Of a stretch of DNA of 64,000 nt, positions 1-64,000 are shown piece after piece. The first letter of the stretch is position 1, and each line of letters starts with the position of its first letter. The notes beneath the pieces were generated by a model. That model made no database searches, had not been told where the DNA came from, and worked only from the letters and a program-made list of their open reading frames with translations. Both the position numbers and the translations under genes were made by a program. This stretch comes from Actinoplanes sp. L3-i22 (GTDB lineage: Bacteria; Actinomycetota; Actinomycetes; Mycobacteriales; Micromonosporaceae): contig NZ_AP024745.1 in the NCBI RefSeq assembly GCF_019704555.1, forward strand, positions 4,100,501 to 4,164,500, written 5' to 3'.

Positions 1-1380
1 CAGCAGGTCGAGGCCGGCCGGGTCGCTCTGGACGCGCCGGTCGCCACCTACGTGCCGGAGTTCGCCGCGGGCGGCAAGGCTTCGGTGACGGTCCGGAACC
101 TGCTCACCCACACCTCCGGGCTGCCGGCGTTCCTGCCGCTGTACTCCACCTATCCGACCCCGCAGCAGCGGCTCGCGGCGGCCCTGAGCACGCCGGTCGT
201 CGCCGGGAGCACACCGGGCGGGCAGTACGTCTACTCCGACATCGGGCTGATCGCGCTCGGCGTGCTGATCCAGCGGGTCACCGGAAAGCCGCTCGCCGAC
301 GCCGTGCGCGACGCGGTGACCGGCCCGCTCGGCATGCGCGACACCGGCTACAACCCGGCGCCGTCACTGCGCAGCCGGACCGCCGCGACCGAGTACGAAC
401 CGTACGTGAACCGGGGGATGGTCTGGGGCTCGGTGCACGACGAGAACTCCTGGGCCCTGGGCGGCGCCGCCGGGCACGCGGGCGTCTTCTCCACCGCGGA
501 TGACCTGGCGATTCTCTGCCAGACGCTGCTCAACGGGGGCAGGTACCGCCACCACCGGATCCTGTCCGAAGACATGGTTCGCCAGGCGCTGGTCAACTAC
601 AACGCGGAGCTGCTGCCGGCGTTCCCGGACAGCGCCCGCGGACTCGGCTTCGAGCTGGCCAGGTACCGGTACATGGACGCGATGACCTCACCGGTCACCT
701 TCGGGCACACCGGCTTCACCGGTACGTCGGTTGTGATCGACCCACTGGGCCAGTCGTTCCTGATCCTGCTCAGCAACCGGGTCCACCCGGATCGCGCCTG
801 GGGCACCAACGACGTCGCTCGCAACGCTCTGGCCCGGACATTCGCGGCCGCCCACCCCATCGGCATCCCGCCGGGCAGCGGAGAAGTGTGGCGCACCGAG
901 CTGCGCGACAGCGCCGTGATGAGCCTGATCGCCCCGCTGGCTCGCCCGGTCGGCGAGAAGGCGAAAGGTTCCTTCCGCATCTGGTACGACACCGAGCCGC
1001 TGCACGACACGCTGCGCCTGGAGTCCTCCTCGGACGGCCAGACCTGGATCCCGGTGCCGATGACACTGCGCCCTGCCAAGGACACGTCCTCGAACGAGGC
1101 GCCGGGCGGCGCCGGGCCGGACCGCGGCGATCCGGGCGCGTATGTCGTGCAAGCGGGCGACGGCGTGCTCACCGGATTCGGTGGGCGTCGGTGGTGGTCG
1201 GCCGGTGTGAACCTGCCGACCGGTACGACGCGGCTGCGCTTCACCTATCGGACCGACGGCGCCGCGCAGGGGCGGGGTGTCCTGCTCGGCCGCCTGCGGG
1301 TGGCCGACGCCGGCGGGACTCTCGTCGACGGCAGCACGGCCTTGGCCACCGACGGCTGGAATCCCTACGAGAACACATAA
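1..1380 (+). CDS. Beta-lactamase-family serine hydrolase, 5' partial
   Basis: The frame is open from base 1, so the N-terminus, including the SxxK nucleophile motif of this family, lies outside the window. What remains shows the conserved NLLTHTSGLP block, a YSD triad in the position of the family Tyr-x-Asn motif (VYSDIGLIALG), and HTG in GHTGFTGTS where class C enzymes have KTG. After about residue 300 there is an extra beta-rich domain of about 140 residues that is not part of the penicillin-binding fold. The gene ends 14 bases before an N-acetylglucosamine transporter gene. In Bacillus subtilis the relative AmiE works in cell-wall muropeptide recovery beside NagZ, and actinobacterial NagZ proteins can carry such a domain at their C-terminus. 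A role in amino-sugar or muropeptide scavenging is therefore inferred; the upstream sequence would decide whether this is a fusion. Confidence 0.85.
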   Translation, partial: QQVEAGRVALDAPVATYVPEFAAGGKASVTVRNLLTHTSGLPAFLPLYSTYPTPQQRLAAALSTPVVAGSTPGGQYVYSDIGLIALGVLIQRVTGKPLADAVRDAVTGPLGMRDTGYNPAPSLRSRTAATEYEPYVNRGMVWGSVHDENSWALGGAAGHAGVFSTADDLAILCQTLLNGGRYRHHRILSEDMVRQALVNYNAELLPAFPDSARGLGFELARYRYMDAMTSPVTFGHTGFTGTSVVIDPLGQSFLILLSNRVHPDRAWGTNDVARNALARTFAAAHPIGIPPGSGEVWRTELRDSAVMSLIAPLARPVGEKAKGSFRIWYDTEPLHDTLRLESSSDGQTWIPVPMTLRPAKDTSSNEAPGGAGPDRGDPGAYVVQAGDGVLTGFGGRRWWSAGVNLPTGTTRLRFTYRTDGAAQGRGVLLGRLRVADAGGTLVDGSTALATDGWNPYENT

Positions 1381-1394
1381 AACGGGAGCGGATC

Positions 1395-2795
1395 ATGCAT
1401 AGATTGAGCCGGCGCGGATTACTCCAAGGCGCGGCGGGCGTCGCCGCCACGGGGGCGCTCGGCGGCTGCGCCATGGGTGGTGACGACGCCAAGGGCGACA
1501 GTGCCAAGGGCGCGACCAGCGCGAACAATCCGCTCGGCGTCAAGGAGGACGCGCCGCTCGAGGTGGTCATCTTCAACGGTGGCTTCGGCGAGGAGTACGC
1601 CAAGGCCCACGAGGCGCTGTACCAGCAGCGCTACCCGAAGGCCGAGATCAAGCACTCGGCGACCCAGCAGATCGCCGAGACCCTGCAGCCCCGGTTCGTC
1701 GCCGGCGACCCGCCGGACGTGATCGACAACTCGGGCGGCAGCCAGATCGACTTCAACGGCCTGGTCTCCCAGGGCGCGCTGACCGACCTCGGTGAGCTGC
1801 TCGACGCGCCCAGCCTCGACGACCCGAACAAGAAGGTCCGCGACACGCTGCTGCCGGGAATCGTCGACGTAGGCACGTACGACGGAAAGTTTCTGACCTT
1901 GAACTACGCCTACTCGGCGTACGGCATCTGGTACTCGAAGAAACTTTTCGACGCGAAGGGCTGGCAGTACCCGAAGACCTGGGACGAGATGATCGCCCTC
2001 TGCAAGACGATCAAAGCGGCCGGGATCTCGCCGTGGACCTACACCGGCGTGCACGCCCGCTACATGAGCTGGCCGATCCTGGCCGCGGCCGCCAAGCTCG
2101 GCGGCCTCGACGTGATCAAGGCGATCGACAATCTGGAGCCGAACGCCTGGAAGCACGACGCGGTCAAGGCCGCCGCCGAGGCCTACTACCAGCTCGCCGT
2201 CGACGGATATCTGCAACCGGGCGCCGAGGGCATGGACCACATCCAGGCGCAGACCGAATGGTGTCGCGGCCACGCCGCATTCGTCTCCTGCGGGTCGTGG
2301 CTGGAGAACGAGCAGAAGTCGGTCACCCCGCCCGGCTTCGACATGGCCGTGGCGCCCACGCCCAGCCTCACCACCAGCGACAAGATGCCGTTCGAGGCGT
2401 TTCGCGGCACCGGCAGTGAACCGTTCATCGTCCCGGCCAAAGGCCAGAATGTCCGGGGTGGAATGGAATACCTTCGGGTCATGCTCTCCACGAAGGCCGC
2501 CGCCGACTTCACCACGAAGGTCAGCAGCCTCACCGCCGTGACCGGCGCGGCCGCGGGGCTCGCACTCGGCCCCGGGCTGACCTCGGTGACCAAGCTGATC
2601 GACGCGTCCCAGGGCGCCGCGTTCACGTGGCTGTACTCGACCTACTACCGCAAGCTGGAACGCGAGCGGGTGAACGCGGCCTCGTTGGAGCTTTTCACCA
2701 AGCGGATCAACGCCGCACAGTGGTGCGACAAGGTGCAGAAGTCCGCCGACGAGTTCGCCAAGGATCCCGCGATCAAGAAGTACAAGCGGGCCTGA
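1395..2795 (+). CDS. ngcE: N-acetylglucosamine/chitobiose ABC transporter, solute-binding lipoprotein
   Basis: A 466-residue extracellular sugar-binding protein (family 1) of an ABC importer. I chose the ATG at 1395 because a GGGAG lies about 6 bases upstream and the protein then starts with a twin-arginine lipoprotein signal: SRRGLL at residues 5-10, a hydrophobic stretch, and lipobox LGGC with Cys25. The mature part has features I recognise from NgcE, such as the LNYAYSAYGIWYS segment and PDVIDNSGGSQ. NgcE binds GlcNAc and N,N'-diacetylchitobiose at the outer membrane face and delivers them to the NgcF/NgcG channel. The two permease genes follow directly. No operator for the amino-sugar regulator DasR is visible in the short gap upstream, so any such control would act from beyond the window. 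Confidence 0.88.
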   Translation: MHRLSRRGLLQGAAGVAATGALGGCAMGGDDAKGDSAKGATSANNPLGVKEDAPLEVVIFNGGFGEEYAKAHEALYQQRYPKAEIKHSATQQIAETLQPRFVAGDPPDVIDNSGGSQIDFNGLVSQGALTDLGELLDAPSLDDPNKKVRDTLLPGIVDVGTYDGKFLTLNYAYSAYGIWYSKKLFDAKGWQYPKTWDEMIALCKTIKAAGISPWTYTGVHARYMSWPILAAAAKLGGLDVIKAIDNLEPNAWKHDAVKAAAEAYYQLAVDGYLQPGAEGMDHIQAQTEWCRGHAAFVSCGSWLENEQKSVTPPGFDMAVAPTPSLTTSDKMPFEAFRGTGSEPFIVPAKGQNVRGGMEYLRVMLSTKAAADFTTKVSSLTAVTGAAAGLALGPGLTSVTKLIDASQGAAFTWLYSTYYRKLERERVNAASLELFTKRINAAQWCDKVQKSADEFAKDPAIKKYKRA

Positions 2796-2796
2796 C

Positions 2797-3702
2797 GTGT
2801 GGGGAAAACGGCTGTTCATCGCGGTCTTCCTGCTCCCACCGCTGCTGCTGTACGGGATCTTCGTCGTCTCGCCGTACGCGCAGGCGTTCCAGATCTCCGG
2901 CACCAACTGGAGCGGGTTGTCCCCGACGTTCGAGTTCGTCGGTTTGGACAACTTCCGCCGGCTGCTCGGCGACGGCTACTTCTGGACCGCGATCAGGCAC
3001 AACGGCCTGCTCCTGCTGCTGCTCCCGGTGGCGACGATCGGGTTGGGACTGTTCTTCGCCTCGATGATCAGTGTGGGCGGCCGCGCGGACCGGGCCGGTG
3101 TGCACGGCGTACGCGGAGCAGGTTTTTATCGGGTGGTTTATTTCTTTCCTCAGGTGTTGTCGGTGGCGATCATCGGCGTGCTGTGGAAGCAGATGTACGC
3201 CCCGCACACCGGCATGATCAACGGGTTCCTGCGGGGCATCGGGCTGGACGCGCTGGCGGTGGCCTGGCTCGGCGACCCGCGCTTCTCGTTCTGGTGCGTG
3301 CTGGCCGTGCTCATCTGGATGAACGTCGGCTTCTACGTCGTGCTCTTCGGCGCGGCCATGCAGTCGATCCCGCGTGACCTGTACGAGGCGGCGCTGCTCG
3401 ACGGCGCCAGCCGGGTCACCACGCTGGTCCGGATCACCGTGCCGCTGCTCTGGGACACCATCCAGGTGGCCTGGGTGTATCTGGCGATCGTCGCGATCGA
3501 CGGGTTCGCGATCGTGCAGATCATCACCGACGGCGGGCCGAGCTCGTCGTCGGACGTGGTCGGGCTACGGCTGTACAAGACCGCGTTCGCCGACGGGCAG
3601 TTCGGCTACGCGTCGGCGATCGGCGTGGCGATGTTCTTCCTGACGCTCACCGTGGCGGCCATGTTCCTGCGAGTGACCCGTCGCGACCGGGTGGAGCTGT
3701 GA
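2797..3702 (+). CDS. ngcF: Sugar ABC transporter permease, NgcF type
   Basis: A 301-residue MalF-type inner membrane permease with six predicted helices. The EAA loop that contacts the ATPase is present as YEAALLDGASRVTTLVRITV. The N-terminal helix LFIAVFLLPPLLLYGIFVV and the following periplasmic loop (SGTNWSG) are typical of carbohydrate uptake family 1 permeases. The GTG start lies one base after the ngcE stop, with no strong ribosome site, so translational coupling to ngcE is likely. It pairs with the next gene to form the channel. The substrate is taken from ngcE; permeases alone do not identify the sugar. Confidence 0.85.
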   Translation: MWGKRLFIAVFLLPPLLLYGIFVVSPYAQAFQISGTNWSGLSPTFEFVGLDNFRRLLGDGYFWTAIRHNGLLLLLLPVATIGLGLFFASMISVGGRADRAGVHGVRGAGFYRVVYFFPQVLSVAIIGVLWKQMYAPHTGMINGFLRGIGLDALAVAWLGDPRFSFWCVLAVLIWMNVGFYVVLFGAAMQSIPRDLYEAALLDGASRVTTLVRITVPLLWDTIQVAWVYLAIVAIDGFAIVQIITDGGPSSSSDVVGLRLYKTAFADGQFGYASAIGVAMFFLTLTVAAMFLRVTRRDRVEL

Positions 3703-4592
3703 TGGCGCTTCTCACCGAAACCCGCCCGGAGTCACCGCCGGAAACTTTCCCCCAAAAGGCCCAGCGCACGGTGCCGGTGATTTCCCACGTGTTCCTGGTC
3801 GGCTGGGCGCTGCTCACCACGCTCCCGCTGGTCTGGGCGGTGCTGAGCTCGTTCAAGAGCGACAACGAGATCCTCACCGACCCGTGGAGCCTGCCGTCGA
3901 GACTGCGCTGGGAGAACTGGGCCCGCGCCTGGGGCCAGGCGCACATCGGGCGCTACTTCCTCAACAGCGCGATCGTGGTCACCGGCGCGCTGGCCATCAC
4001 CATGCTGTTCGGGGCGATGGCCGCCTACGTCCTGGCCCGCTACAAGTTCCGCGGCAGCCGGATCATCTACTTCGCCTTCACCGGCGGCATGATGTTTCCG
4101 GTCTTCCTCGCGCTCGTGCCGCTTTTCTTCGTGGTCCGCAATCTCGGCCTGCTCGGCACACTGCCCGGCCTGACCCTGGTCTACGCGGCGTATTCGCTGC
4201 CGTTCACGGTGTTCTTCCTGACCGCGTTCTTCCGCACGCTGCCGACCTCGGTCGCCGAGGCCGCGATGGTCGACGGCTGCGGCCATTTCCGGCTGTTCTT
4301 CCGCGTCATGCTGCCGATGGCCCGCCCCGGTCTGGTCAGCGTCGCCATCTTCAATTTCCTGTTCCAGTGGAATCAGTACGTCCTGCCGATCGTGCTGATG
4401 CAGGGTGAGGGCGCCGAGCGCAGATGGGTGCTGGCCCAGGGGCTGACGGCGCTCGCGGTCAACGAGGGCTACCGCGGGGACTTCAGCGGCCTGTTCGCCG
4501 GCATGACCATCGCCATGCTGCCGGTGCTCGCCGCCTACCTGCTGTTCCACCGCCAATTCCAGAGTGGCCTGGCCGCCGGCCAACTCCGGTAG
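3702..4592 (+). CDS. ngcG: Sugar ABC transporter permease, NgcG type
   Basis: A 296-residue MalG-type permease, partner of NgcF. It has an N-terminal cytoplasmic tail, six helices and the EAA loop (VAEAAMVDGCGHFRLFFRVM). The ATG overlaps the ngcF stop by one base (TGATG), which shows tight coupling. A GTG three bases upstream is also in frame. No ATPase gene follows: in Streptomyces the Ngc system borrows the shared ATPase MsiK encoded elsewhere, and the same arrangement is inferred here. The operon appears to end here, since the next gene is 63 bases away and unrelated. Confidence 0.85.
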   Translation: MALLTETRPESPPETFPQKAQRTVPVISHVFLVGWALLTTLPLVWAVLSSFKSDNEILTDPWSLPSRLRWENWARAWGQAHIGRYFLNSAIVVTGALAITMLFGAMAAYVLARYKFRGSRIIYFAFTGGMMFPVFLALVPLFFVVRNLGLLGTLPGLTLVYAAYSLPFTVFFLTAFFRTLPTSVAEAAMVDGCGHFRLFFRVMLPMARPGLVSVAIFNFLFQWNQYVLPIVLMQGEGAERRWVLAQGLTALAVNEGYRGDFSGLFAGMTIAMLPVLAAYLLFHRQFQSGLAAGQLR

Positions 4593-4655
4593 CTCGCCGA
4601 TGATGCGGGATCGGATCGTGGCCGGGCTCGGTGCCGGAACCGCTATCGTCGCGAG

Positions 4656-4844
4656 ATGACCGCCGAGTGCCCGCTGTCGCGGGAATACGTGGGCATCATC
4701 TGGATCGGAGACCGGCCCGGCATCCGTTTCTGCATTCTTGCGGCCTCCTTCGGGGACGCGAAAGCCTTGCTGGCCGAGGAGTACGGCGAAGGGCACGTCA
4801 TCTCCATGTGGAACGAGAAAGCCGCCTCGCGGCCACGCGAATGA
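4656..4844 (+). CDS. Small hypothetical protein, 62 aa
   Basis: I do not recognise this protein. The 62 residues are compact and balanced (segments such as YVGIIWIGDRPGIRFCILAASFGDAKALLAEEYGEGHVISMWNE), with alternating beta- and helix-like stretches rather than the Arg/Ala-rich text of a shadow frame. Its stop overlaps the ATG of the following kinase-like gene in an ATGA arrangement, which supports real translation and coupling. The ribosome site is weak. A regulatory or partner role for the next gene is possible but is not shown by the sequence. Confidence 0.6.
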   Translation: MTAECPLSREYVGIIWIGDRPGIRFCILAASFGDAKALLAEEYGEGHVISMWNEKAASRPRE

Positions 4845-5284
4845 CACGCACCCTGATCACCGGAATGTCGGGGGCCGGCAAGAGCACGCTGCTCGCCGAG
4901 TTGGCGCGGCGCGGGCACGACGTCGTCGACACCGACTACGACGGCTGGACGCTGCCGGACGGGGATTGGGACGAGCCCCGCATGGCGGCACTGCTGGCGC
5001 AGATGAAGGAACTTTTTGTCTCGGGGACGGTGGCGAACCAGGGCCTCTTCTACGACCGGTTCGATCACGTCGTGCTGCTCAGCGCGCCCCTCGGCGTACT
5101 TCTCGAACGGGTGGCCAAGCGTTGCGGCAATCCGTACGGAAACAGCGAACGTGACCGAGCCGAGATCGAGCGGTACCTGCGCGAGGTCGAACCGCTGCTG
5201 CGGCGCGGCGCCACCCTCGAACTCGACGGGCGCCGGTCGCTGACCGACCTGGCCGACGTCGTCGAGCGGCTGCATCGCCGGTGA
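4841..5284 (+). CDS. P-loop small-molecule kinase-like protein
   Basis: A 147-residue nucleotide-binding protein of the shikimate/adenylate-kinase type. Residues 5-15 contain a Walker A motif, ITGMSGAGKST, followed by DVVDTDYDGWTLPDG, where the acidic pair matches the DxD substrate/Mg region of such kinases. The VVLLSAPLGVLLERV segment matches the strand and helix before the lid. The C-terminal half is short, with an Arg-rich lid (RCGNPYGNSERDRAEIERYL). The substrate is unknown; many actinobacterial genomes have such a stand-alone AAA/kinase-like ATPase. The start overlaps the stop of the 62-residue gene upstream. Confidence 0.75.
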   Translation: MTRTLITGMSGAGKSTLLAELARRGHDVVDTDYDGWTLPDGDWDEPRMAALLAQMKELFVSGTVANQGLFYDRFDHVVLLSAPLGVLLERVAKRCGNPYGNSERDRAEIERYLREVEPLLRRGATLELDGRRSLTDLADVVERLHRR

Positions 5285-5310
5285 CGGCAATGGCCGGCGC
5301 CGTGCCGGGC

Positions 5311-6441
5311 TCAGGAATGTGTGATCGGGGTCCGCGTCTGCGGTTCCAGGGGCAGGGTGGCCCGCACCTCGAACACCTCGCCGGAGCGCAGGCCGGCCGA
5401 GAACCGCCCGCCGGCCGACTCGGCCCGTTCCCGCATTCCGATCATGCCGTGGCCGGTGCCCGGACCGCGGTGCCCGGCTCGCGCGGCGTTGGTGACCACG
5501 ATCTCCAGGACGTCGCCGAGGTAGGAAAGTTCCAGGTCCGCGCGGCGCTCGACGCCGTGCTTTCCCGCGTTGGTGAGCGCCTCCTGCACGATCCGGTAGG
5601 CGGCCAGCCCGGCCGCCGCCACCAGCGGCCGGGCCGCACCTGCGCCGCTGACCTGGACGTCGAATCCGCTCTGGCGGAAAGTTTCCACCAACTCGTCGAG
5701 TTGCTCGAAGGCCGGCGTCGGTTGCCGGCTCTCCGGCTCGTCGTCGGAGCGCAGCAGCCCCACGGTGGCGCGTAGTTCGTCCAGGGCGGTGCGGCTGGTC
5801 TCCTGGATACCGGCGAGCGCCTGGTACGCCCGGTCCGGGTCGGTGCGCATCAGATGGTGCGCGACTCCGGCTTGGGCGTTGACCAGGGTGATGTGGTGGG
5901 CGACGACGTCGTGCAGGTCCCGGGCGATGCGGATGCGCTCCTCGCGCACCTGCCGGCGGGCCTCCGCCTCCCGGCTCTGCTCGGCCTCGACCGCGCGCTG
6001 CCGCTGCTCGTGCAGCATGGCCCGCTGATTGCGGATTGAGGAGCCGACGGCGACCGCCGCGGCGACATAGTTGATCGGCACGACCACGTGGATGTCACCG
6101 AAGTGGTCCGGCAGCCAGATCGCGGAACTGGCGGTGAGCAGCACCGCCGCGACGGTGGCGAGGATCGTCGCGGTGCGCCGGTCGGTGTGGCGGGCCACGG
6201 TATAGAGCGCGACCATGGTGGCGACGTCCGGGATGATCAGGTGCGGCGCGGCGGCGGGAAAGGCGGCTCCGCACACCATGGCGGCGACCGCGGACGTACG
6301 CGGAAATCGCCGCCGCCAGAACAACGCGCCCGCCCCGGCCACCAGGAAGATCAACTGCCAGGTGGTGGGGGCGTGCAGGCCCGTGCCCTGTCCCCAGGCC
6401 ACCTCGGCCATGAAGACAAGCACCACCAACAGCGGCACCAT
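5311..6441 (-). CDS. Sensor histidine kinase, NarL-partner type (HisKA_3)
   Basis: A 376-residue membrane kinase. The first about 140 residues hold several hydrophobic helices with almost no extracellular domain. A coiled linker rich in Glu/Arg/Gln follows, then the dimerisation box with the phospho-accepting histidine in ARDLHDVVAHHITL, and a C-terminal ATP-binding domain (EALTNAGKHG and a G box GTGHGMIGMRERAE). Such kinases phosphorylate NarL/LuxR-type regulators, and the partner gene lies one base upstream in the same operon. The signal is unknown; intramembrane-sensing kinases of this shape often respond to envelope stress or antimicrobials, but nothing here proves that. Confidence 0.9.
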   Translation of the reverse strand: MVPLLVVLVFMAEVAWGQGTGLHAPTTWQLIFLVAGAGALFWRRRFPRTSAVAAMVCGAAFPAAAPHLIIPDVATMVALYTVARHTDRRTATILATVAAVLLTASSAIWLPDHFGDIHVVVPINYVAAAVAVGSSIRNQRAMLHEQRQRAVEAEQSREAEARRQVREERIRIARDLHDVVAHHITLVNAQAGVAHHLMRTDPDRAYQALAGIQETSRTALDELRATVGLLRSDDEPESRQPTPAFEQLDELVETFRQSGFDVQVSGAGAARPLVAAAGLAAYRIVQEALTNAGKHGVERRADLELSYLGDVLEIVVTNAARAGHRGPGTGHGMIGMRERAESAGGRFSAGLRSGEVFEVRATLPLEPQTRTPITHS

Positions 6442-6442
6442 G

Positions 6443-7132
6443 TCAGGTGCCCGAGCGTGGCGCGACGAGACCGGTCTCGTAGGCGAAAACCACCAACTGC
6501 GCGCGGTCGCGGGAGCCGGTCTTCATCATCGCCCGGTTGATATGGGTCTTCGCGGTGGCGGTGCTGATCGTGAGCCGGTCCGCGATCTCCTGGTTGGACA
6601 GCCCGGCACCGGCCAGCACGGTGATCTCCCGTTCCCGCGTGGTGAGGTCGGCCAGCGCCCGGGCGTACTGCGGGGCGCCGACGAGGGGCCGGGCCGGCGC
6701 GGGCTGCGCGAGGAAGCGCCCGATCAGCGCGGTCGTCGCGGCGGGCGACAGAAGGGAATCTCCGGCGGCCACCGTCCGTACGGCGGAAATGAGCTCCTCG
6801 GGGTTGACGCCCTTGCCGAGGAAACCGCTGGCGCCGGCGCGCAGCGCGGAGACGACGAACTCGTCGGTCTCGAACGTGGTCAGAATCAGCACCCGGACCC
6901 CGGCCAGGGCCTCGTCGCCGCTGATCCGTCGGGTCGCCTCGATGCCGTCCATGTCCGGCATGCGGATGTCCATCAGGATCACGTCGGCGCGCAGCTCGCG
7001 GGCCAGGGTCACGGCCTCGGCGCCGGTGGCGGCCTCCCCGACGACCTCGATGCCGGGCTGGGCGTCGAGCAGCAGGCGGAAGGTCGCGCGCAGCAGCGCC
7101 TGGTCGTCGGCGAGCAGCAGTCGGATGGTCAC
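6443..7132 (-). CDS. Response regulator, NarL/LuxR family
   Basis: A 229-residue regulator with an N-terminal receiver domain (acidic pair in LLLADDQ, phospho-Asp in VILMDIRMPDMDG, then T/S and K in LILTTFETDEF and GFLGKGV) and a C-terminal LuxR helix-turn-helix (LTTREREITVLAGAGLSNQE and TAKTHINRAMMK). I place the start at the GTG at 7132 because the receiver begins there and a GGAG lies about 9 bases upstream. It is co-transcribed with, and one base from, the kinase gene. It likely controls its own operon or nearby genes; no target site is evident. Confidence 0.9.
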   Translation of the reverse strand: MTIRLLLADDQALLRATFRLLLDAQPGIEVVGEAATGAEAVTLARELRADVILMDIRMPDMDGIEATRRISGDEALAGVRVLILTTFETDEFVVSALRAGASGFLGKGVNPEELISAVRTVAAGDSLLSPAATTALIGRFLAQPAPARPLVGAPQYARALADLTTREREITVLAGAGLSNQEIADRLTISTATAKTHINRAMMKTGSRDRAQLVVFAYETGLVAPRSGT

Positions 7133-7606
7133 CGGATCATTCTCCGCATTCGAAAGTGGCCCGCGTGGCGACCGAACACTTTCGGTCACCGCAGGTTGTC
7201 GGGCGAGGGCCGCCGGCCCGGAGCAACGATGCGAAGGTGGCCACCGACGGAACTTTTCGGCGTGGTGGGATCCAGGGTGCCGTGACTGTGGGATCCACGT
7301 CGTCAACCCGGTGCCGCATCCATAGGTACCGCGGATGCGTTACGGCTGCGGCCGCGACGCCGGGCATACCGCGATCACGGTACGGCGGGTGTGCGCGGGC
7401 GGGGATGCGGTCTGCGCGGGCGGGGGTGCGGGTCTGCGTGGGCGCGTCGGTCGACTCCGCCCCGCGACGGGCGGTGGGCTCGTGGCCGGCCGATGTCGCC
7501 GGGACGGCTCTGCTGCCCGGGCGCCGGCTCGGCGCCAGCCGCTGTGGGCGCGACGGATCTGCTGTTCGGGCGTTGTGACGCTCGCGCTGTTTGCGCAGGT
7601 CCGGAC
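7133..7606. other. Non-coding stretch upstream of the two-component operon
   Basis: About 470 bases without a convincing gene. It must hold the promoter for the leftward two-component operon. It contains a GGAACTTTTC variant of the dispersed motif near 7239 and two imperfect copies of a GCGCGGGCGGGG-ATGCGG element around 7395-7440. I see no clear terminator after the leftward TetR gene. Confidence 0.5.
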
Positions 7607-8248
7607 TCACCAGCCGAAGCTCGTGGCGGCGTTGCCGACCAGCGGCACCGCCTCTCCCGGCCGGGTGATCGGTGCCACCAGCATCCCGGCCGCCGCGTCG
7701 CAAAGGAAATTTCCGACGGCGGCCCACTCCGGATCCCGCCCGTCGCGTTCCGCGCGAGCCTCCACCTCCGCGGCCGTGCTCACCGCCATCCTCGTGATCA
7801 GCGCGGCCCGCGCGGTCACCACGTCGTGGTCCAGGTGCGCGAGGCGCCCGGCCAGCGACCGCAGGATCCGCGTCGTGGTCGGCGCCAGGTCCGCGTTCAC
7901 CGACATCAGCGCCCGCGTGGCGGGATCGTGCAGCGCCTGCCCGAGGAACCGGGCCCGCCAGGTCGGCTGGGGGAGCGCTGCCAGCACCGTCGTCGTCGGC
8001 ACCACCAGGCTGCGGATGTCGTCGAGCACCGAGCCGGAACTTTCCGACATCGCCCGACGTGGCTCCTCGACCGCGGCCGCGTGCCGCGCGATCAGGGCCC
8101 GCAGCAGGCCTTCCCGGCCACCGAAGTAGTAGCGCACCGCGGAATGGTTGGTGTTGCCGGCGGCCTCGGCGACCCGGCGGTCGGAGACCTGGGCGATGCC
8201 GGCCTCGGCGAAGAGCCGCTCGGCCGCGTCGAGCAGGGCGTCGGTCAT
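7607..8248 (-). CDS. TetR-family transcriptional regulator
   Basis: A 213-residue repressor with the usual N-terminal three-helix DNA-binding domain (LLDAAERLFAEAGIAQVSDRRVAEAAGNTNHSAVRYYFGGREGLL) and an all-helical ligand-binding domain. The ATG at 8248 faces the divergent alcohol dehydrogenase gene across an 82-base gap that contains two copies of a perfect 16-base palindromic site, so control of itself and of the dehydrogenase is well supported. The ligand cannot be read from the sequence; it is probably a substrate or product of the dehydrogenase. Confidence 0.9.
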   Translation of the reverse strand: MTDALLDAAERLFAEAGIAQVSDRRVAEAAGNTNHSAVRYYFGGREGLLRALIARHAAAVEEPRRAMSESSGSVLDDIRSLVVPTTTVLAALPQPTWRARFLGQALHDPATRALMSVNADLAPTTTRILRSLAGRLAHLDHDVVTARAALITRMAVSTAAEVEARAERDGRDPEWAAVGNFLCDAAAGMLVAPITRPGEAVPLVGNAATSFGW

Positions 8249-8265
8249 CGGCGGGGTTCCCCTTC

Positions 8266-8303
8266 TAAGGCACGTGACTTACGATCCTAAGCCACGTGAC
8301 TTA
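8266..8303. promoter_or_regulatory. Double palindromic operator for the divergent TetR/dehydrogenase pair
   Basis: Two direct copies of a 16-base palindrome, TAAGGCACGTGACTTA (8266-8281) and TAAGCCACGTGACTTA (8288-8303), centre to centre 22 bases (two helical turns). Both share the core CACGTG. The arrangement would let two TetR dimers bind on one DNA face and block both divergent promoters. Confidence 0.8.
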
Positions 8304-8330
8304 CGTGAGTGCGGCAGGATCGAGGAACCG

Positions 8331-55404: not shown

Positions 55405-55477
55405 GCCGTTCAGGCTCCGGCACCCGATCGAACAGGTCCAGCGATGATTTCCGCAGGTGATTCGTTAGGATTTTCGC

Positions 55478-56392: not shown

Positions 56393-56533
56393 GGTCGTGC
56401 GCTGCGCGGTGGAGGTGAGGCGGGGCGCGCCGCGCTGCGCCGGCGCGGTCGGTGCTGACCAGAGGCTCACGGCGGCGGCTGCTGCTGGACGCCTACCCGG
56501 GTGGGGTTCGGCTGACCTGACCATAATGGGCGC

Positions 56534-57550
56534 GTGATCGAGAAGGCGGCCGATGACGGGAATCTCGACCTGCTGCGCGACCTGATCGACGCCGATCCGC
56601 CGCCACCCGACGTGCTGCTGCGGGCCATGGCGACGGCCCGTGCCTGGTTCGGCCGCGACCCGGCGACCGAACTGCGCGAACGGCTCGGCGCGCCGGACGC
56701 GACGGTCGAGACCGGGGTGCTGACTTTCGAGGATTACCTGCCGACCGTGCGGTGGGTCCGAGTCGTCGCGCCGGACGGCCGCCGGGTCGAGGTGCGGCTC
56801 GCGCACCGGGCGATCGTCACGTTCCTCGAGCGGGCCATCGGCCTCCGGGTGCCTCCGGATGAGCTGCTCGAACGTGCGCTCTGGTCGGGTGACCCGGAGT
56901 CGCAGGACTGGTCGCAGGCGGATCTCACGATCCGCCGCCGGGTGCCGATCGAGGAGAGCGCTCAGTGGGCGATCGGCCGGCTCGGCGATCCGGAGCCGCT
57001 GGTGCGACGGTTCGCCGCCGGGCTGTTGCATTTGATGAGTTTCGACATCGAGGGGGAGGAGTATGTCGGCGCGCTGCGCGACCGTCTCGGGGTGGAGTCC
57101 GACGGTGCGACGCTCTCCTCGGTGATCGGCGCGTACTCCGGCTTCCTCGACGACCGGGTGCTGCCCGAGCTGATCCCGTTCGCCCGCGATCCCCGCGTTG
57201 ACGTGCGGTGCCGGGTCGCCGGCGAGCTCATGACCGATTCTGACGGGCAGCCGGCCGAGATGCTCGCGGCGCAGTTCGACCTGACCCGGGACGAGGATCC
57301 GACCGTGCGACGGGTGGCGCTGGCTGCGCTGATCCACGGCCCGGTCGACGTGCCCGTGATCCGCGAGCTGCTCGCCGTCCACCTGGCCGGCGACGATCGG
57401 CAGCTGCGGATCGAAGCGGCGTTCGGCCTCGCGCGGCGCGGGGACGGTCCGGCGTTGGCGGAGTTGCGGCGGCTGGCTCAGGAAGATGGCGACGAGTCGT
57501 CGACATGGCACTCCTATTGGGGCGTACTCAATATTCTCGGCCAGCGCTGA
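56534..57550 (+). CDS. HEAT-repeat-like protein
   Basis: A 338-residue helical-repeat protein, not assigned to a named family. The second half shows repeated helix pairs with the HEAT pattern: GRLGDPEPLVRRFAAGLLHLM, ARDPRVDVRCRVAGELM, RDEDPTVRRVALAALIHG, DDRQLRIEAAFGLARRGDGPALAELRRLA. Such proteins act as binding scaffolds. GTG start at 56534. No operon partner. The gene has no dispersed motif copies apart from GACTTTCGAG near 56722. Confidence 0.78.
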   Translation: MIEKAADDGNLDLLRDLIDADPPPPDVLLRAMATARAWFGRDPATELRERLGAPDATVETGVLTFEDYLPTVRWVRVVAPDGRRVEVRLAHRAIVTFLERAIGLRVPPDELLERALWSGDPESQDWSQADLTIRRRVPIEESAQWAIGRLGDPEPLVRRFAAGLLHLMSFDIEGEEYVGALRDRLGVESDGATLSSVIGAYSGFLDDRVLPELIPFARDPRVDVRCRVAGELMTDSDGQPAEMLAAQFDLTRDEDPTVRRVALAALIHGPVDVPVIRELLAVHLAGDDRQLRIEAAFGLARRGDGPALAELRRLAQEDGDESSTWHSYWGVLNILGQR

Positions 57551-57655
57551 GCAGCGGATCGCCGCTGGTCAGAGCCCGCTCGTGGGCACCGCCCGCGAAA
57601 TTGGCCGGAGAGAGCAGCGAGACCGCTTGTTCCGTGCTGCGCCGGGCCGAGGTGG

Positions 57656-57967
57656 TCAGTCGAGGCGGGGCGGGTCGGGGCGCGGGGAGTCGAAGAGCGC
57701 CCGCAGCGCCGCCACATGCCGGTGATACGCCGCCCGGCCGCCGGGCGTCAGGCTGACCCACGTCCGCACCCGGCCGCGCCCGGTCGGCTTCGACACCTCG
57801 ATGTGGCCGGCGTCCTGCAGCACCTTCAGATGCTTGCTCAGCACCGAGTCGGCCACCCCGAGCAGGTCGCGCAGGACGCCGAACTCGGTGCTGCTCGTAG
57901 CGTCGAGGAACGCGCAGATCCGCAGCCGGTTCGGCGCGTGGATCGTCTCGTCGAACTCCTCGCTCAT
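57656..57967 (-). CDS. Winged-helix regulator (ArsR/MarR-like, HTH_27 type)
   Basis: A 103-residue DNA-binding protein. PNRLRICAFLDATSSTEFGVLRDLLGVADSVLSKHLKVLQDAGHIEVSKPTGRGRVRTWVSLTPGGRAAYHRHVAALR is a full winged helix with the wing in KPTGRGRVRTWVSLT. This compact class usually regulates the membrane protein encoded with it. Its ATG overlaps the stop of the preceding membrane protein gene (ATGA), so the pair is co-translated. Confidence 0.88.
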   Translation of the reverse strand: MSEEFDETIHAPNRLRICAFLDATSSTEFGVLRDLLGVADSVLSKHLKVLQDAGHIEVSKPTGRGRVRTWVSLTPGGRAAYHRHVAALRALFDSPRPDPPRLD

Positions 57968-58407
57968 CCCGCCGTCCGCAGCTGAGCGCGCAATGCGCTG
58001 TCGAACCGGCGACCGAGAACGATCGTGCCCACCAGGCCGGCCGCGGCGAGCGGCCACACCGGCCACCGCAGCTCCGTGTACGACCCGAGCAGCCAGGCGG
58101 CGACCGCGATGACCCCGATCAGCGCACCCAGCGCGTTCGCCCAGCGACCGGCGCGGCCCGCGTCGAAACCGGACACCCAGACGCCGGTGAGGCTCTTGTA
58201 CGCCCGGGCGAGCGCGGCCGCACCGGCGACGAAAAGCACCACCGTGACCAGCCGGAGTGCGGTGTTGCCCAGGCCCATGCCGACCACATAGCCGGCGATC
58301 AGCAGGCCGAGGATCGGGTGATACCACCACGGAGTCACGAGCCGGTCGGCGACGGCGGCACGGGTGTTGGCGATGGCGTCGAGCTGCTCAGCCGCATTAC
58401 TTTCCAT
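57964..58407 (-). CDS. Membrane protein, four helices, partner of the winged-helix regulator
   Basis: A 147-residue protein with a short charged N-terminus (MESNAAEQLDAIANTRAAVADRL), then PWWYHPILGLLIAGYVVGMGL, LVTVVLFVAGAAALARAYK, ALGALIGVIAVAAWLLGSY and VWPLAAAGLVGTIVLGRRF as membrane helices. Proteins of this form commonly pair with small winged-helix regulators in Actinobacteria; the function is unknown. First gene of the two-gene operon. Confidence 0.82.
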   Translation of the reverse strand: MESNAAEQLDAIANTRAAVADRLVTPWWYHPILGLLIAGYVVGMGLGNTALRLVTVVLFVAGAAALARAYKSLTGVWVSGFDAGRAGRWANALGALIGVIAVAAWLLGSYTELRWPVWPLAAAGLVGTIVLGRRFDSALRAQLRTAG

Positions 58408-58502
58408 GCCGGAAAGTCAATCACATTCCAAGACGGAAAACAATTGAGGGTACGGCGTGAGCACCGTCCCCAAGGGATCCGGCGGCGCAGCGCCCCCCGT
58501 GT

Positions 58503-58632
58503 CGCTGCGTGGTCAGGGACCGGGTGGCGCTGCGTGGCCAGAGACCAGGTGGGCGCTGCGTGGCCGGAGGCAGGGTGGCGCTGCGTGGCCAGGGATCAAA
58601 CGGTGTTGCGTCGCCGGGGATCAGGCGGTGCT
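58503..58632. repeat. 25-26 base tandem repeat, five to six copies
   Basis: CGCTGCGTGG recurs at 58503, 58528, 58554 and 58579, followed by CCAGGGACC-like text and a decayed TGTTGCGTCG copy. It lies just beyond the stop of the leftward hydrolase gene and upstream of the operon at 58407. Confidence 0.75.
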
Positions 58633-58646
58633 GCGCCCCATGGGGA

Positions 58647-59561
58647 TCAGCCGGCCAGGTTCGTCGCGTAGAAGCCGGCGATCTCCTTGACGGCCGGGTC
58701 GACGTACTCCGGCTTGTCGTACAGGTCGACGTGGCTGGCGCCCTCGATCCAGACCAGCCGCTTCGGGCCGGTCGCCCGCTGGAACGCCTCGATGGCCATC
58801 CACGCGGTGACGGCGCGCCGGCCGACGATGGACAGCAGCGGGCGGTCGCCGAGCAGCGGAACCGCGGCCCACGCGTCGAACAGGGCCAGGTGGTCGATGC
58901 TCTGCCAGGGCATCGCCTTGGTCGAGCGGGGATGTTCGCCGCGCGGCGTGCAGTAGTACTCGACGCCTTCGAAGCCGTGCTCGCCGCCCAGCTCACGGCC
59001 CTGCTCGGGAGTGGGCGGGAACAGCGGGAAGCTCTGCGGACCGGCGCCGCGGGCCTCGGCGGTGCGGGCCGCCGCAGCCGCGTCCAGCATGCCCTGGAAG
59101 ACGGCCGGGTCCTGGTCACCATCGGCGCCGAAGCGGAACTGGCGGGCGATGTCGACACCGCTGACCGTGGCGACCGCCTTGATGCGGTGATCGGTAGCGG
59201 TCGCGTTCAGGACGTAGCCGCCGGAGGCGCAGATGCCCAGCGCGCCGATCCGGTCGGCGTCGACCTCGGCGCGGGTGGTCAGGTGGCTCACGGCCGCTTT
59301 GAGGTCCTCGATGCGGTGCGCCGGGTCCTCCAGGCCGCGCGGCAGGCCCTCGGACTCGCCCTGGTACGCGGCGTCGAAGGCGAGCGCCGCGTAGCCGTGC
59401 TCGGCGAGCTTGCCGGCGTAGAGACCGGCAGCCTGCTCCTTCACACCGCTGCCGGGGTGCCCGACCACGACCGCAGGAAACTTCCCGCCGCCGTCGGGCA
59501 GGTAAAGATTTCCGGCGATCTGCAGGCCCTGACTGTCGAACGTCACGTCGATTTTGTGCAT
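58647..59561 (-). CDS. Alpha/beta hydrolase, dienelactone-hydrolase-like
   Basis: A 304-residue cytoplasmic hydrolase. The nucleophile elbow is IGALGICASGGYVLNA (Ser in CASGG), the acid is probably in the strand before VGRRAVTAWMAI, and the His is in WIEGASHVDLYDKPEYV. LPDGGGKFPAVVVGHPGSGVKEQ and AFDAAYQGESEG are typical of this X-Pro/dienelactone-like family. The ATG at 59561 has GAGAGG 10 bases upstream. Substrate unknown. The leader carries a GGAAACTTTC copy. Confidence 0.87.
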   Translation of the reverse strand: MHKIDVTFDSQGLQIAGNLYLPDGGGKFPAVVVGHPGSGVKEQAAGLYAGKLAEHGYAALAFDAAYQGESEGLPRGLEDPAHRIEDLKAAVSHLTTRAEVDADRIGALGICASGGYVLNATATDHRIKAVATVSGVDIARQFRFGADGDQDPAVFQGMLDAAAAARTAEARGAGPQSFPLFPPTPEQGRELGGEHGFEGVEYYCTPRGEHPRSTKAMPWQSIDHLALFDAWAAVPLLGDRPLLSIVGRRAVTAWMAIEAFQRATGPKRLVWIEGASHVDLYDKPEYVDPAVKEIAGFYATNLAG

Positions 59562-60181
59562 GGCAAAGCCACCTCTCGTGCGGGTTGGTTTCTTTCCTGC
59601 GGTCGGAAACTTTCTTACGGCCGGTTTCTTTCCTTCATCCAGATTCGCTGAAGCCGCGGCCGCGCGCCCCAGGGACGATCCCTGGGCGAGACACCGGGCA
59701 TGCCCCGGGCGCGGCAACGGCGGGCCGGTGCACCTGGGCGGAACGACGGTCAACAGCCCGGGTGAAGGCGGCGGTCGTAGCCCGGACGGAAATGGCGAGC
59801 GGGGGGCACACCGGATGGGCGCGTGGCGCTGGATGGGCGTGGCCCTAGATGGGCGCGTGGTGCTGGATGGGCGTGGCGCCGGAAGGGCGGGGTGACTTGG
59901 TGGCTCGGGCGGAGATGGTGGGCGGGGTGCGCTGGATGGGCGGGGCGCCGGAAGGGCGGGGTGATTTGGTGGCTCGGGCGGAAACGGTGGGTGAGAACGC
60001 TGGGTGGGCGCGGTGGGTGGGAACGGTGGGTGGGTGCGGTCGTTGGTGGGTCTGGCTGGAGGTGGTGGGTGGTGGGTGATGCGCGGGGCGCGGGGGAGCC
60101 GGCTGGGCTGTTGGGTGGTTTTCGGGCCGGCAGGTTTGGATGCGGTCGGGAACTGGCCGCAATGGGGGTGAGCATGGGGGT
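59562..60181. other. Divergent intergenic region with 69-base repeat
   Basis: About 620 bases between the leftward hydrolase and the rightward VOC gene. The first 70 bases hold GGAAACTTTC and GGTTTCTTTCC elements close to the hydrolase start. From 59820 onward the DNA is G-rich tandem repeat (69-base unit, listed separately) and shorter GGTGGGTG runs to about 60080. No gene supported. Confidence 0.55.
59862..59999. repeat. 69-base tandem repeat, two copies
   Basis: Copies begin at 59862 and 59931 with GCTGGATGGGCG, then GCGCCGGAAGGGCGGGGTGA and TTGGTGGCTCGGGCGG. Shorter partial GATGGGCG units precede them from about 59813. 69 is a multiple of three, though no gene uses it. Confidence 0.8.
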
Positions 60182-63136: not shown

Positions 63137-63568
63137 TCAGGCGCTGGCGGCGGCCTGCTGAGCCTGCCAGATCGCGATCTGGACGCCGACCACGAAGACC
63201 TGCAACGGCAGCGACAGCCCGGGCAACTCGGCCTCGACACCACCGGACCAGGCGCTCGTGCGATGCATCGACCCGGTCGGCACCCCGTCGGTCAGCAACT
63301 CCTGACGATTGCCGAAAAAAGAGGCACGGCGGAATTCATACGTACGGCCGTCGGCCCGCATCGTCCAGTGTTTCCGGCCGGCCCGCTCGACCAGGGCGAC
63401 CTCGGTGCCGGTCTGATCGAACATCCGGTACTTGGTGCCCCAGCCGTTCGCCCGCACCTGGAAACGGCGGCCGTCGATCTCGAAGTCGCCACCGTTGCGC
63501 CACCACGACGGATCCCAGACGGTGACCGGGCGGCCGTCCGACTCGATCTCGTAGCGGCCGCGCCACAT
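63137..63568 (-). CDS. LURP-one/tubby-like fold protein candidate
   Basis: A 143-residue protein starting MWRGRYEIESDGRPVTVWDPSW, with repeated strand pairs (FEIDGRRFQVRANGWGTKYRMFDQTGTEVALVERAGRKHWTMRADGRTYEFRR) and a C-terminal hydrophobic helix (LPLQVFVVGVQIAIWQAQQAA). The strand pattern resembles LURP-one-related proteins (a beta-barrel around one helix); this is a fold guess. The ATG at 63568 has AGGAG 7 bases upstream. Confidence 0.68.
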   Translation of the reverse strand: MWRGRYEIESDGRPVTVWDPSWWRNGGDFEIDGRRFQVRANGWGTKYRMFDQTGTEVALVERAGRKHWTMRADGRTYEFRRASFFGNRQELLTDGVPTGSMHRTSAWSGGVEAELPGLSLPLQVFVVGVQIAIWQAQQAAASA

Positions 63569-63689
63569 GCTTGCTCTCCTGGCGGTCAACATAGCCCGAG
63601 CGTAAACCGGGTCTGCCAGCCCAGCGGGCGGCGCGGATGCGGTTGGGGCGGGGCTCCGGCCGTACCCAAGCAAGGGTAATCGGCTGTGG

Positions 63690-64000
63690 AGGGTTTCGCT
63701 AAGCGATCTTGTGTTTTATTGTGCTGGTGTGTCTCGACTTCGTATTGGTCCTGCTGCCGCGTATCTGGGTGTGCATCCGGTGACATTGCGCCGGTGGGCG
63801 AACGAGGACCGGATTGGGTTCGTGTGGGTGGGTCGGGAACGACGGTTCGACACCGAGGTCCTGGATGCGTTCAGCGGGGTTCGTCCTGAGGATGGTGTCC
63901 GGCGGGAGGTGTTGTATCTGCGGGTGTCGGGGTCTTCGGGTCAGGAGACGTCGCTGGTGTCGCAGGAGACCGAGTTGCGGGCGTCGTCGAGGGGCGAGGT
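63690..64000 (+). mobile_element. Left part of an IS607-type element
   Basis: Base composition drops near 63705 (GATCTTGTGTTTTATTGTGC) and an IS607-type transposase begins, continuing past the window edge. The exact left end and any TnpB-type gene cannot be seen. Confidence 0.65.
63729..64000 (+). CDS. IS607-family serine transposase, 3' partial
   Basis: The frame from the GTG at 63729 is open to the edge (about 90 codons). It starts with a MerR-like helix-turn-helix (SRLRIGPAAAYLGVHPVTLR, then RWANEDRIGF and VGRERRF), then a serine-recombinase start LYLRVSGSSGQETSLVSQET, where the Ser in RVSG is the expected nucleophile. This order, a MerR-type HTH before a small serine recombinase, defines IS607 TnpA. 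The rest is outside the window, so intactness is unknown. Confidence 0.8.
   Translation, partial: MSRLRIGPAAAYLGVHPVTLRRWANEDRIGFVWVGRERRFDTEVLDAFSGVRPEDGVRREVLYLRVSGSSGQETSLVSQETELRASSRGE

What the first reader, a model, noticed from the sequence alone, without database searches (positions are those of the whole stretch)
1..64000. A dispersed palindromic motif, GAAASTTTC, recurs across the window in all reading frames
Exact GAAA(C/G)TTTC occurs at least 13 times: cores within 1884-1893, 3740-3750, 5676-5686, 11513-11522, 11548-11557, 19248-19256, 22880-22889, 26069-26078, 30271-30280, 46411-46421, 48994-49003, 49332-49341 and 59605-59614. Perfect GGAAATTTCC palindromes are at 7706 and 16032, and dozens of close variants (GAAATTTTC, GGAACTTTCC, GGTAATTTTC) fill the AT-rich points of most genes. 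In genes it encodes K-F, E-T-F, K-L-S, K-V-S or E-S-F, so it is read in different frames, which points to DNA-level selection. With independent bases at about 72% G+C (my estimate) well under one exact copy would be expected. It may be a site for a nucleoid protein, a recombination or repair signal, or a HIP1-like highly iterated palindrome.
Basis: partly seen in the sequence, partly recalled or inferred. Interest (0 to 1): 0.72.

Follow-up and report, generated by a model that had tools for sequence, protein, structure and literature searches.

The report
Palindrome tiling one Actinoplanes clade's operons
In a soil bacterium and its two nearest relatives examined, a 16-letter palindrome recurs about every 500 letters through whole blocks of genes, placed there by point mutations; it is probably the landing site of an unknown DNA-coating protein.

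Summary
The motif is real and far beyond chance: 13 exact GAAASTTTC in the window against 0.13 expected. It is part of a longer signal, the even-centred palindrome GNNGRAANNTTYCNNC: 113 matrix sites in the window, the last ending at 59,617. It is not genome-wide, so not HIP1-like: it fills a block of about 100 kb (202 sites, 4.0595-4.1611 Mb) and patches mostly within 3.5-7.3 Mb of a 12.0 Mb chromosome. Codon-preserving shuffles give 33 sites against 166 observed in genes. Density is equal in coding and non-coding DNA. Among 67 Actinoplanes genomes this one has 184 exact 16-mers, A. liguriensis 112, A. cyaneus 30 and the others 4-24. Alignments show sites gained by point substitution. The chromosome length equals that of Actinoplanes sp. 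L3-i22. Best explanation: recognition sites of a cooperative, chromatin-like DNA-binding protein that coats whole, often catabolic, operons. The binder is unknown; an Lrp/AsnC-type protein is only one candidate.

The parts
1..59617 (.). window part of the motif-dense block (genome 4.0595-4.1611 Mb); 113 matrix sites, none from 59618 to 64000
960..975 (.). exact 16-mer site GNNGRAANNTTYCNNC
1881..1896 (.). site with GAAAGTTTC (1885)
1937..1952 (.). exact 16-mer site, score 23.4
3737..3752 (.). exact 16-mer site with GAAACTTTC (3741)
5673..5689 (.). two overlapping exact 16-mer registers with GAAAGTTTC (5677)
7246..7261 (.). exact 16-mer site
7702..7717 (.). site with perfect GGAAATTTCC (7705)
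8033..8048 (.). exact 16-mer site
8381..8396 (.). exact 16-mer site
8789..8804 (.). strong site, score 20.1
9191..9206 (.). exact 16-mer site, score 25.4 (highest in the window)
10946..10961 (.). exact 16-mer site
11392..11407 (.). strong site, score 21.9
11510..11525 (.). exact 16-mer site with GAAACTTTC (11514)
11545..11560 (.). site with GAAAGTTTC (11549), outside called genes
16029..16044 (.). exact 16-mer site with GGAAATTTCC (16032), score 23.1
16889..16904 (.). exact 16-mer site
17285..17300 (.). exact 16-mer site
19245..19260 (.). site with GAAAGTTTC (19248)
21495..21510 (.). exact 16-mer site
22877..22892 (.). site with GAAACTTTC (22880)
22971..22986 (.). strong site, score 23.4
23144..23159 (.). 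strong site, score 21.2
23501..26008 (+). FtsX-type permease gene used for the cross-species alignment; sites arose here by substitution
24067..24082 (.). site, score 20.6; the same position is a weaker site in A. liguriensis and A. cyaneus and no site in 8 other Actinoplanes
24205..24220 (.). exact 16-mer site inside the FtsX gene
24238..24253 (.). exact 16-mer site inside the FtsX gene
24698..24713 (.). exact 16-mer site inside the FtsX gene
26066..26081 (.). site with GAAAGTTTC (26070), outside called genes
29351..29366 (.). strong site, score 20.4
30268..30283 (.). exact 16-mer site with GAAACTTTC (30271), in the ZnuA-like gene
30844..30859 (.). exact 16-mer site
31796..31811 (.). exact 16-mer site
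31943..31958 (.). exact 16-mer site
33188..33203 (.). strong site, score 21.0
33659..33674 (.). strong site, score 21.9
34737..34752 (.). strong site, score 20.9
36041..36056 (.). exact 16-mer site
39076..39091 (.). exact 16-mer site, score 20.4, in the alpha-L-arabinofuranosidase gene
39347..39362 (.). exact 16-mer site, in the alpha-L-arabinofuranosidase gene
40286..40301 (.). exact 16-mer site, score 24.7
46409..46424 (.). exact 16-mer site with GAAACTTTC (46412), between divergent called genes
46733..46748 (.). strong site, score 21.3
48991..49006 (.). site with GAAACTTTC (48995), outside called genes
49331..49346 (.). exact 16-mer site with GAAAGTTTC (49335)
59473..59488 (.). exact 16-mer site
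59602..59617 (.). last matrix site of the block, with GAAACTTTC (59606)

Best explanation
The sites are recognition sequences of a dimeric, sequence-specific DNA-binding protein. They have been multiplied by selection on the DNA itself in the clade of Actinoplanes sp. L3-i22 and A. liguriensis and, more weakly, A. cyaneus. Each site is a 16-bp palindrome, GNNGRAANNTTYCNNC, with two outer G/C contacts per half-site and an A/T-leaning centre. Because sites tile coding and non-coding DNA alike (about one per 500 bp) and pair more often than average at 25-34 bp, the protein most likely binds cooperatively and coats whole operons as a chromatin-like layer, silencing or structuring accessory and catabolic genes in the part of the chromosome away from the origin. 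Shown: the motif, its blocks, DNA-level selection, clade restriction, gain by point substitution. Inferred: that a protein binds it, that binding is cooperative, the coating, and any effect on transcription. The binder is not identified; an Lrp/AsnC-type protein is one candidate type.
For: Half-site spacing: GNNGRAA with its complement is commonest at gap 2, 56 against 0.4 per 100 kb in controls (gap 1: 14 against 0.6; gap 3: 5 against 0.1), and gap 2 is again the optimum in 180 kb of dense stretches at 6.95-7.25 Mb, 30.0 per 100 kb, and in A. liguriensis (16 at gap 2, at most 5 elsewhere) and A. cyaneus (11, at most 4). Codon-preserving null: 166 against 33 +/- 4.4, largest of 60 shuffles 47; exact 16-mer in genes 44 against 0.89, largest of 300 shuffles 4. 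Density 1.96/kb coding and 2.14/kb elsewhere, against 0.16/kb in 21 sampled stretches outside 3.5-7.3 Mb. At own-site codons A. liguriensis and A. cyaneus carry A/T at the central wobble positions in 52 of 132 and 64 of 150 cases, against 9-10% elsewhere; wobble identity between those two species is 198/235 at own sites and 5016/6497 elsewhere, p = 0.011. In four aligned genes 2.13, 2.11 and 1.76 sites/kb in the three clade genomes against 0.10/kb in 8 other loci. Pairs 25-34 bp apart: 57 where about 25 is average, 51 against about 24 when one 27-bp array gene is left out; an array with about 30-bp steps at 5.9083-5.9089 Mb.
Against: No binding protein, occupancy or expression data. The matrix and the exact word were derived from the block itself, so counts in the block are in-sample. 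For the shorter half-site GRAA, gap 1 is nearly as common as gap 2 (57 and 78), mostly because GAAASTTTC-type words fit both registers. Helical phasing over all spacings is weak (0.09 at 10.5 bp; 0.44 at 3 bp, from codons). The excess of amino-acid changes at site codons is not significant (17 of 66 against 262 of 1607, p = 0.061) and is biased by choosing sites in this genome. The 8 comparison loci are not in the same gene neighbourhood (seen for 5 of them), so lack of sites there may reflect location as well as lineage. The catabolic theme was not tested against a background.
Confidence: 0.5

Rival explanations
1. Ordinary operators: the sites belong to a conventional global transcription factor acting at promoters, for example a nutrient-responsive regulator.
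For: Isolated patches track catabolic loci: acyl-CoA dehydrogenase with an Lrp/AsnC-type gene, 2-oxoacid dehydrogenase genes beside another Lrp/AsnC-type gene, urea-carboxylase-like gene, class-III aminotransferase and aldehyde dehydrogenase beside a LysR gene.
Against: Density is the same inside and outside called genes. The gap between the Lrp/AsnC-type gene and the 2-oxoacid dehydrogenase genes holds no site above threshold although the genes hold several. The block has 202 sites for 81 called genes.
Confidence: 0.15
2. Molecular drive: the palindrome is an uptake, conjugation or recombination signal that spreads because DNA carrying it is preferentially exchanged.
For: Density of about one per 500 bp, equal in coding and non-coding DNA, resembles uptake sequences (resemblance recalled).
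Against: Confined to blocks and one clade, where the simple form of the idea predicts genome-wide spread. No exchange machinery was examined.
Confidence: 0.13
3. Chromosome-domain or segregation system of the matS/MatP or Noc kind.
For: 94 of 100 listed places of one half-consensus lie in 3.5-7.3 Mb of a chromosome with dnaA at 1.7 kb, that is, away from the origin.
Against: Far tighter spacing than matS (23 copies in 800 kb, PMC3330122, start of abstract in listing); sites are clumped on particular genes. The terminus was not located: GC skew of the sampled stretches was too noisy.
Confidence: 0.1
4. Horizontal import: the blocks are DNA from a donor whose whole genome carries the motif.
For: Block structure; in A. 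liguriensis the sites stop where collinearity with the window's genome stops.
Against: No genome with such abundance among 397 of the order (GGAAAGTTTC: own 32, highest other 21) or 300 of the family (exact 16-mer: highest outside the clade 43 and 31). The left edge falls inside a transporter operon collinear with A. cyaneus. Sites arose by substitution in shared genes and differ between species.
Confidence: 0.06
5. Chance, codon use or preferred amino-acid pairs.
For: One codon phase dominates (140 of 168), as protein constraint on placement would give.
Against: Codon-preserving and order-4 Markov nulls fall far short; DNA outside called genes shows the same density; 64 of 67 Actinoplanes genomes lack the expansion.
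Confidence: 0.01

Closest known systems
matS sites of MatP (E. coli Ter macrodomain)
   Same: short protein-bound word repeated within one part of a circular chromosome
   Different: matS is 13 bp, 23 copies in 800 kb (PMC3330122, start of abstract in listing); here 202 sites in about 100 kb, clumped on genes, clade-specific
HIP1 of cyanobacteria (recalled)
   Same: highly iterated palindrome in coding and non-coding DNA
   Different: HIP1 is another, shorter word and genome-wide; this motif is longer, degenerate and confined to blocks
Lrp/AsnC-type global regulators
   Same: degenerate sites; neighbouring sites two or three helical turns apart; amino-acid metabolism (PMC2995911, passages)
   Different: no binder identified; sites fill gene bodies over about 100 kb; one expected promoter gap lacks a site
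MalT-regulated large genomic region of Actinoplanes sp. SE50/110
   Same: block of 51 genes sharing one palindrome in the same genus (PMC7567727, abstract and passages)
   Different: motif TCATCC-N5-GGATGA overlaps the -35 region of 17 start sites; other sequence, promoter-bound
Gbn, GATC-binding nucleoid protein of Streptomyces
   Same: sequence-specific actinobacterial nucleoid protein with over 2,800 bound regions (PMC9239103, passages)
   Different: recognises GATCWT and is widely distributed over the genome
Stoperators of cluster A mycobacteriophages
   Same: as many as 30 dispersed repressor sites in a genome (PMC6550527, passages)
   Different: phage; sites mostly in one orientation relative to transcription; here bacterial and palindromic, and no phage family appeared among the proteins scanned with Pfam

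Membership tests
HIP1-type highly iterated palindrome | genome-wide spread (recalled) | tested here: not met
   94 of 100 listed places of one half-consensus lie in 3.5-7.3 Mb
HIP1-type highly iterated palindrome | HIP1 octamer sequence (recalled) | tested here: not met
   consensus is GNNGRAANNTTYCNNC
DNA uptake sequences (features recalled) | genome-wide, non-palindromic word tied to transformation | tested here: not met
   palindromic and block-confined; transformation itself not testable here
matS/MatP-type domain sites | sites confined to the terminus region | tested here: inconclusive
   zone lies away from dnaA, but the terminus was not located
matS/MatP-type domain sites | MatP homologue present | not tested
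   no search made
Lrp/AsnC regulator sites | neighbouring sites two to three helical turns apart | tested here: inconclusive
   excess at 25-34 bp but weak overall phasing
Lrp/AsnC regulator sites | sites at the regulator's own gene | tested here: inconclusive
   five sites at the acyl-CoA dehydrogenase and Lrp/AsnC-type genes near 3.56 Mb; weaker ones at the same locus in relatives in and out of the clade; the gene is present in all 67 genomes
Lrp/AsnC regulator sites | site in the gap between Lrp/AsnC-type gene and 2-oxoacid dehydrogenase genes | tested here: not met
   no site above threshold between 5190696 and 5190828 (families)
Lrp/AsnC regulator sites | demonstrated binding | not testable with these tools
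   needs EMSA, DAP-seq or ChIP
MalT-type regional regulon | TCATCC-N5-GGATGA at -35 regions | tested here: not met
   different consensus; no preference for DNA outside genes
Lsr2/H-NS xenogeneic silencing (feature recalled) | binding to generally A+T-rich foreign DNA | tested here: inconclusive
   G+C of the dense stretches (0.70-0.71) is like the neighbours; no such protein was searched for

The most novel reading that the evidence does not exclude
A bacterial 'heterochromatin code': a sequence-specific chromatin protein whose sites have been written by selection into the bodies of whole operons over several hundred kilobases, in one clade of one genus, recently enough that gains and losses can be read site by site between three species, perhaps even at the cost of amino-acid changes.
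Probability: 0.35. Interest if true: 0.87.

Novelty: new variant of a known kind. Interest (0 to 1): 0.72.

Why it matters
The dispersed protein-binding words of bacterial chromosomes that I know of are old and sparse, or spread over the whole genome (recalled). Here a word is caught while spreading, block by block and through substitutions in genes, with most congeners lacking it. That makes a question directly testable: how a genome acquires a new chromosome-scale protein-binding landscape, and what this costs the proteins encoded there. A bound protein would be a new kind of operon-coating regulator in an actinomycete genus known for antibiotics.

Tried and rejected
Odd-centred GAAASTTTC as the motif: at a score cut-off of 14 an odd-centred matrix gave 93 sites against 1.9 expected, the even-centred one 138 against 3.2; the even one was kept because the longer half-site has a clear optimum at gap 2. 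Genome-wide or donor origin. The Lrp/AsnC-type gene near 3.56 Mb (I call it bkdR by recall) as binder: present in all 67 Actinoplanes, best matches 90-96% identical outside this genome (95% over residues 26-153 in A. liguriensis); in the 12 sequences aligned the stretch SVSAVHQRVRRLEQRG is the same, with a few changes elsewhere in the HTH domain, so it does not explain the clade restriction. MalT-type region: different motif. GC skew to place the terminus: too noisy. RNA-level function: not tested. Other DNA-binding proteins of the window (TetR, GntR, LysR, ArsR/MarR-like, response regulators) were not tested as binders; 8 poorly classified proteins gave no binder of a known kind beyond the ArsR/MarR-like one. 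Literature: 'GAAASTTTC' anywhere, 0 papers; iterated palindrome with genomic island or actinobacteria, 10 rows listed of 874; Actinoplanes with nucleoid protein or binding motif, 10 of 361; BkdR with Lrp and Streptomyces, 0; A. liguriensis, 3. No description among what I saw; the claim goes no further. One search compared some loci in the wrong orientation and is superseded. One search stopped with an error after its first rows, which I report below. One search's matrix of the second region was built from sites picked with the first matrix, so it is not an independent derivation; one search is used instead.

Full report
Observation. GAAASTTTC occurs 13 times in the window against a mean of 0.13 in 100 dinucleotide-preserving shuffles. 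In the whole chromosome it occurs at 69 places, the word read backwards at 5. The places cluster: 22 lie between 4.066 and 4.161 Mb and 21 between 6.887 and 7.249 Mb (counted in the list). The window is G000:C1:4100501-4164500 of a 12,014,766-base contig with dnaA at 1.7 kb. That length equals the published chromosome of Actinoplanes sp. L3-i22, reported as closest to A. liguriensis with ANI 87.6% (PMC8530027, whole text read); the identification rests on this equality and on the genus seen.

The motif. A scan of half-site spacings gave gap 2 as the optimum for GNNGRAA and its complement: 56 in the 100-kb block against 0.4 per 100 kb in 35 control stretches (684 kb); gap 1 gave 14 against 0.6 and gap 3 gave 5 against 0.1. 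With the shorter half-site GRAA, gap 1 (57) is not far behind gap 2 (78), since words such as GGAAASTTTC fit both. A matrix trained on the gap-2 register has G at -8 (0.93) and -5 (0.95), G or A at -4, A at -3 (0.79) and -2 (0.80), A-leaning at -1 (0.56), and the complement on the other side; 200 sites above threshold in 100 kb, 14.9 expected from the controls. Block counts with this matrix are in-sample. Outside the training block, gap 2 is again the optimum in 180 kb of dense stretches at 6.95-7.25 Mb (30.0 per 100 kb) and in A. liguriensis and A. cyaneus. Five rearranged control words gave 0 in the block and 0 in its flanks, the motif 56 and 3; being 0 on both sides, the control words bound the background only loosely.

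Where it is. In 4.0005-4.2645 Mb there are 234 sites, 202 of them between 4.0595 and 4.1611 Mb. The window has 113, the last ending at 59,617. The 400 kb from 6.87 Mb hold 303. Smaller patches lie near 3.56, 3.83, 3.97-4.01, 4.33, 5.19, 5.22, 5.90, 6.55 and 6.89 Mb. Twenty-one sampled stretches outside 3.5-7.3 Mb (420 kb) hold 67, or 16 per 100 kb, the background. Of 100 listed places of one half-consensus (101 counted; four pairs are overlapping registers), 94 lie between 3.5 and 7.3 Mb. G+C of the dense stretches is like that of the neighbours. Density is 1.96/kb in called genes (168 sites) and 2.14/kb elsewhere (34 sites). The gene caller is a simple one of my own, so part of 'elsewhere' may be coding. 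Spacing of successive sites looks random (coefficient of variation 1.08), with an excess of pairs 25-34 bp apart (57 against about 25; 51 against about 24 without one repeat-bearing gene). Regular runs: 17 sites scoring above 9 (15 above threshold) in mostly 30-bp steps at 5.9083-5.9089 Mb between convergent LysR and ATP-grasp genes, 27-bp steps near 7.0697 Mb, 42-bp steps near 5.1937 Mb and 57-bp steps near 6.5469 Mb.

Selection on DNA. With each gene's amino-acid sequence and codon numbers kept, 81 block genes hold 166 sites against 33 +/- 4.4 (60 shuffles, largest 47), the exact 16-mer 44 against 0.89 (300 shuffles, largest 4) and GAAASTTTC 13 against 0.23 (largest 2). The 118 flanking genes hold 24 against 20 at the same threshold, but 9 against 3.8 (largest 8) at the stricter one, so a trace remains there. 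Of 168 coding sites 140 are in the phase in which positions -8, -5, -2, +2, +5 and +8 are all third codon positions.

Evolution. The exact 16-mer occurs 184 times in this genome, 112 in A. liguriensis (G031), 30 in A. cyaneus (G061) and 4-24 in the other 64 of 67 Actinoplanes genomes; read backwards it occurs 2-11 times. In 300 genomes of the family the highest outside the clade are 43 and 31; in 12 genomes chosen mostly for high counts (ten from other families of the order, two from this family) the highest is 56. The 4.0005-4.16 Mb stretch is largely collinear with A. cyaneus contig 24 from 108 to 5 kb, with genes missing on either side. Dense sites in A. cyaneus run from the contig end to about 60 kb, which matches the left edge here, in a transporter operon; further, sparser patches lie at 70-75 and 105-138 kb. 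In genes aligned at 68% identity or more over at least half their length, 42 of 81 own sites coincide with one of 59 A. liguriensis sites and 47 of 98 with one of 89 A. cyaneus sites: retention and turnover. In the FtsX gene one position is a site in all three genomes with different letters, none of eight other Actinoplanes has a site in that gene, and the differences are substitutions (odd-centred matrix, cut-off 9). Over four neighbouring genes the densities are 2.13, 2.11 and 1.76 per kb in the clade and 0.10 in eight outgroup loci (4 sites in 39.9 kb). The outgroups compared share this gene unit but not its neighbourhood, so location and lineage are confounded there. At own-site codons 28 of 66 differ synonymously from the outgroup majority, 17 differ in amino acid and 21 are unchanged; 17 of 66 against 262 of 1607 other codons is not significant (p = 0.061). 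Against A. liguriensis, amino-acid identity at own-site codons is lower than elsewhere (259 of 327, 0.79, against 0.86), and synonymous codons are kept somewhat more often than expected (187 of 259 against 165, first rows before its error; sites chosen in this genome). A comparison of A. liguriensis with A. cyaneus, which does not use the genome that defined the sites, gives wobble identity 198/235 at 51 own sites and 5016/6497 elsewhere (p = 0.011, not corrected for codon type), and A/T at the central wobble positions in 39-43% against 9-10%. Block genes with a counterpart in either relative carry 2.15 sites/kb, those without 1.55.

What the blocks encode. Proteins scanned include sugar-binding ABC transporters, arabinofuranosidases, GH127 and GH43, NamZ, GH3, zinc uptake, two-component systems, a TPP enzyme, aldehyde dehydrogenases, a xylose-isomerase-like protein, and in patches an acyl-CoA dehydrogenase with an Lrp/AsnC-type gene, 2-oxoacid dehydrogenase genes, a urea-carboxylase-like protein, DUF1989, class-III aminotransferase, class-II aldolase and an MTHFR-like protein. 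This looks catabolic, but it was not tested against a background, and not every gene was scanned. Stretches without sites occur inside the block, for example 49.9-54.7 kb of the window, with FIST and GGDEF-EAL genes that have no counterpart passing the filter in the two relatives' contigs.

Interpretation. A palindrome under selection in DNA whether or not it is coding, with retained positions and turnover, is best read as the site of a dimeric protein. Even coverage of genes and close pairing argue for coating rather than promoter operators. The Lrp/AsnC family fits in kind: degenerate sites and neighbours two or three turns apart are described for it (PMC2995911, passages), and two patches lie at Lrp/AsnC-type genes out of 20 such matches in the genome. 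Against it, the gene near 3.56 Mb is nearly the same in species without the expansion, and the gap beside the other one has no site. The binder remains unknown.

Limits. 

Noticed in passing
L013 8351-8895 (genome 5,908,351-5,908,895): Degenerate array of 17 sites scoring above 9, mostly in 30-bp steps, between convergent LysR and ATP-grasp genes; possible nucleation site.
   Followed up: partly
L139 13658-13916, L142 11848-12076, L031 19668-19803: Other regular runs of the site in 42-bp, 57-bp and 27-bp steps, the latter two inside called genes.
   Followed up: partly
window 59618-64000: No site above the even-centred matrix threshold (an odd-centred matrix gave one weaker match near 60486): a sharp right edge.
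   Followed up: partly
window, whole: TGATCA palindrome 38 against 16 expected under the order-2 model, a second, unexamined enriched palindrome.
   Followed up: no
window 18858-20359: Two adjacent minus-strand genes (369 and 130 aa) without a Pfam or NCBIfam match; both have counterparts in A. liguriensis.
   Followed up: partly
genome G502 C1 3,885,789-3,933,868: Identical site GGTGGAACGTTTCCAC listed four times about 16 kb apart, suggesting a large tandem duplication in another genus of the family.
   Followed up: no
G087 and G474: Two genomes outside the genus have 56 and 43 exact 16-mers against 7 and 11 read backwards; not examined for clustering.
   Followed up: no
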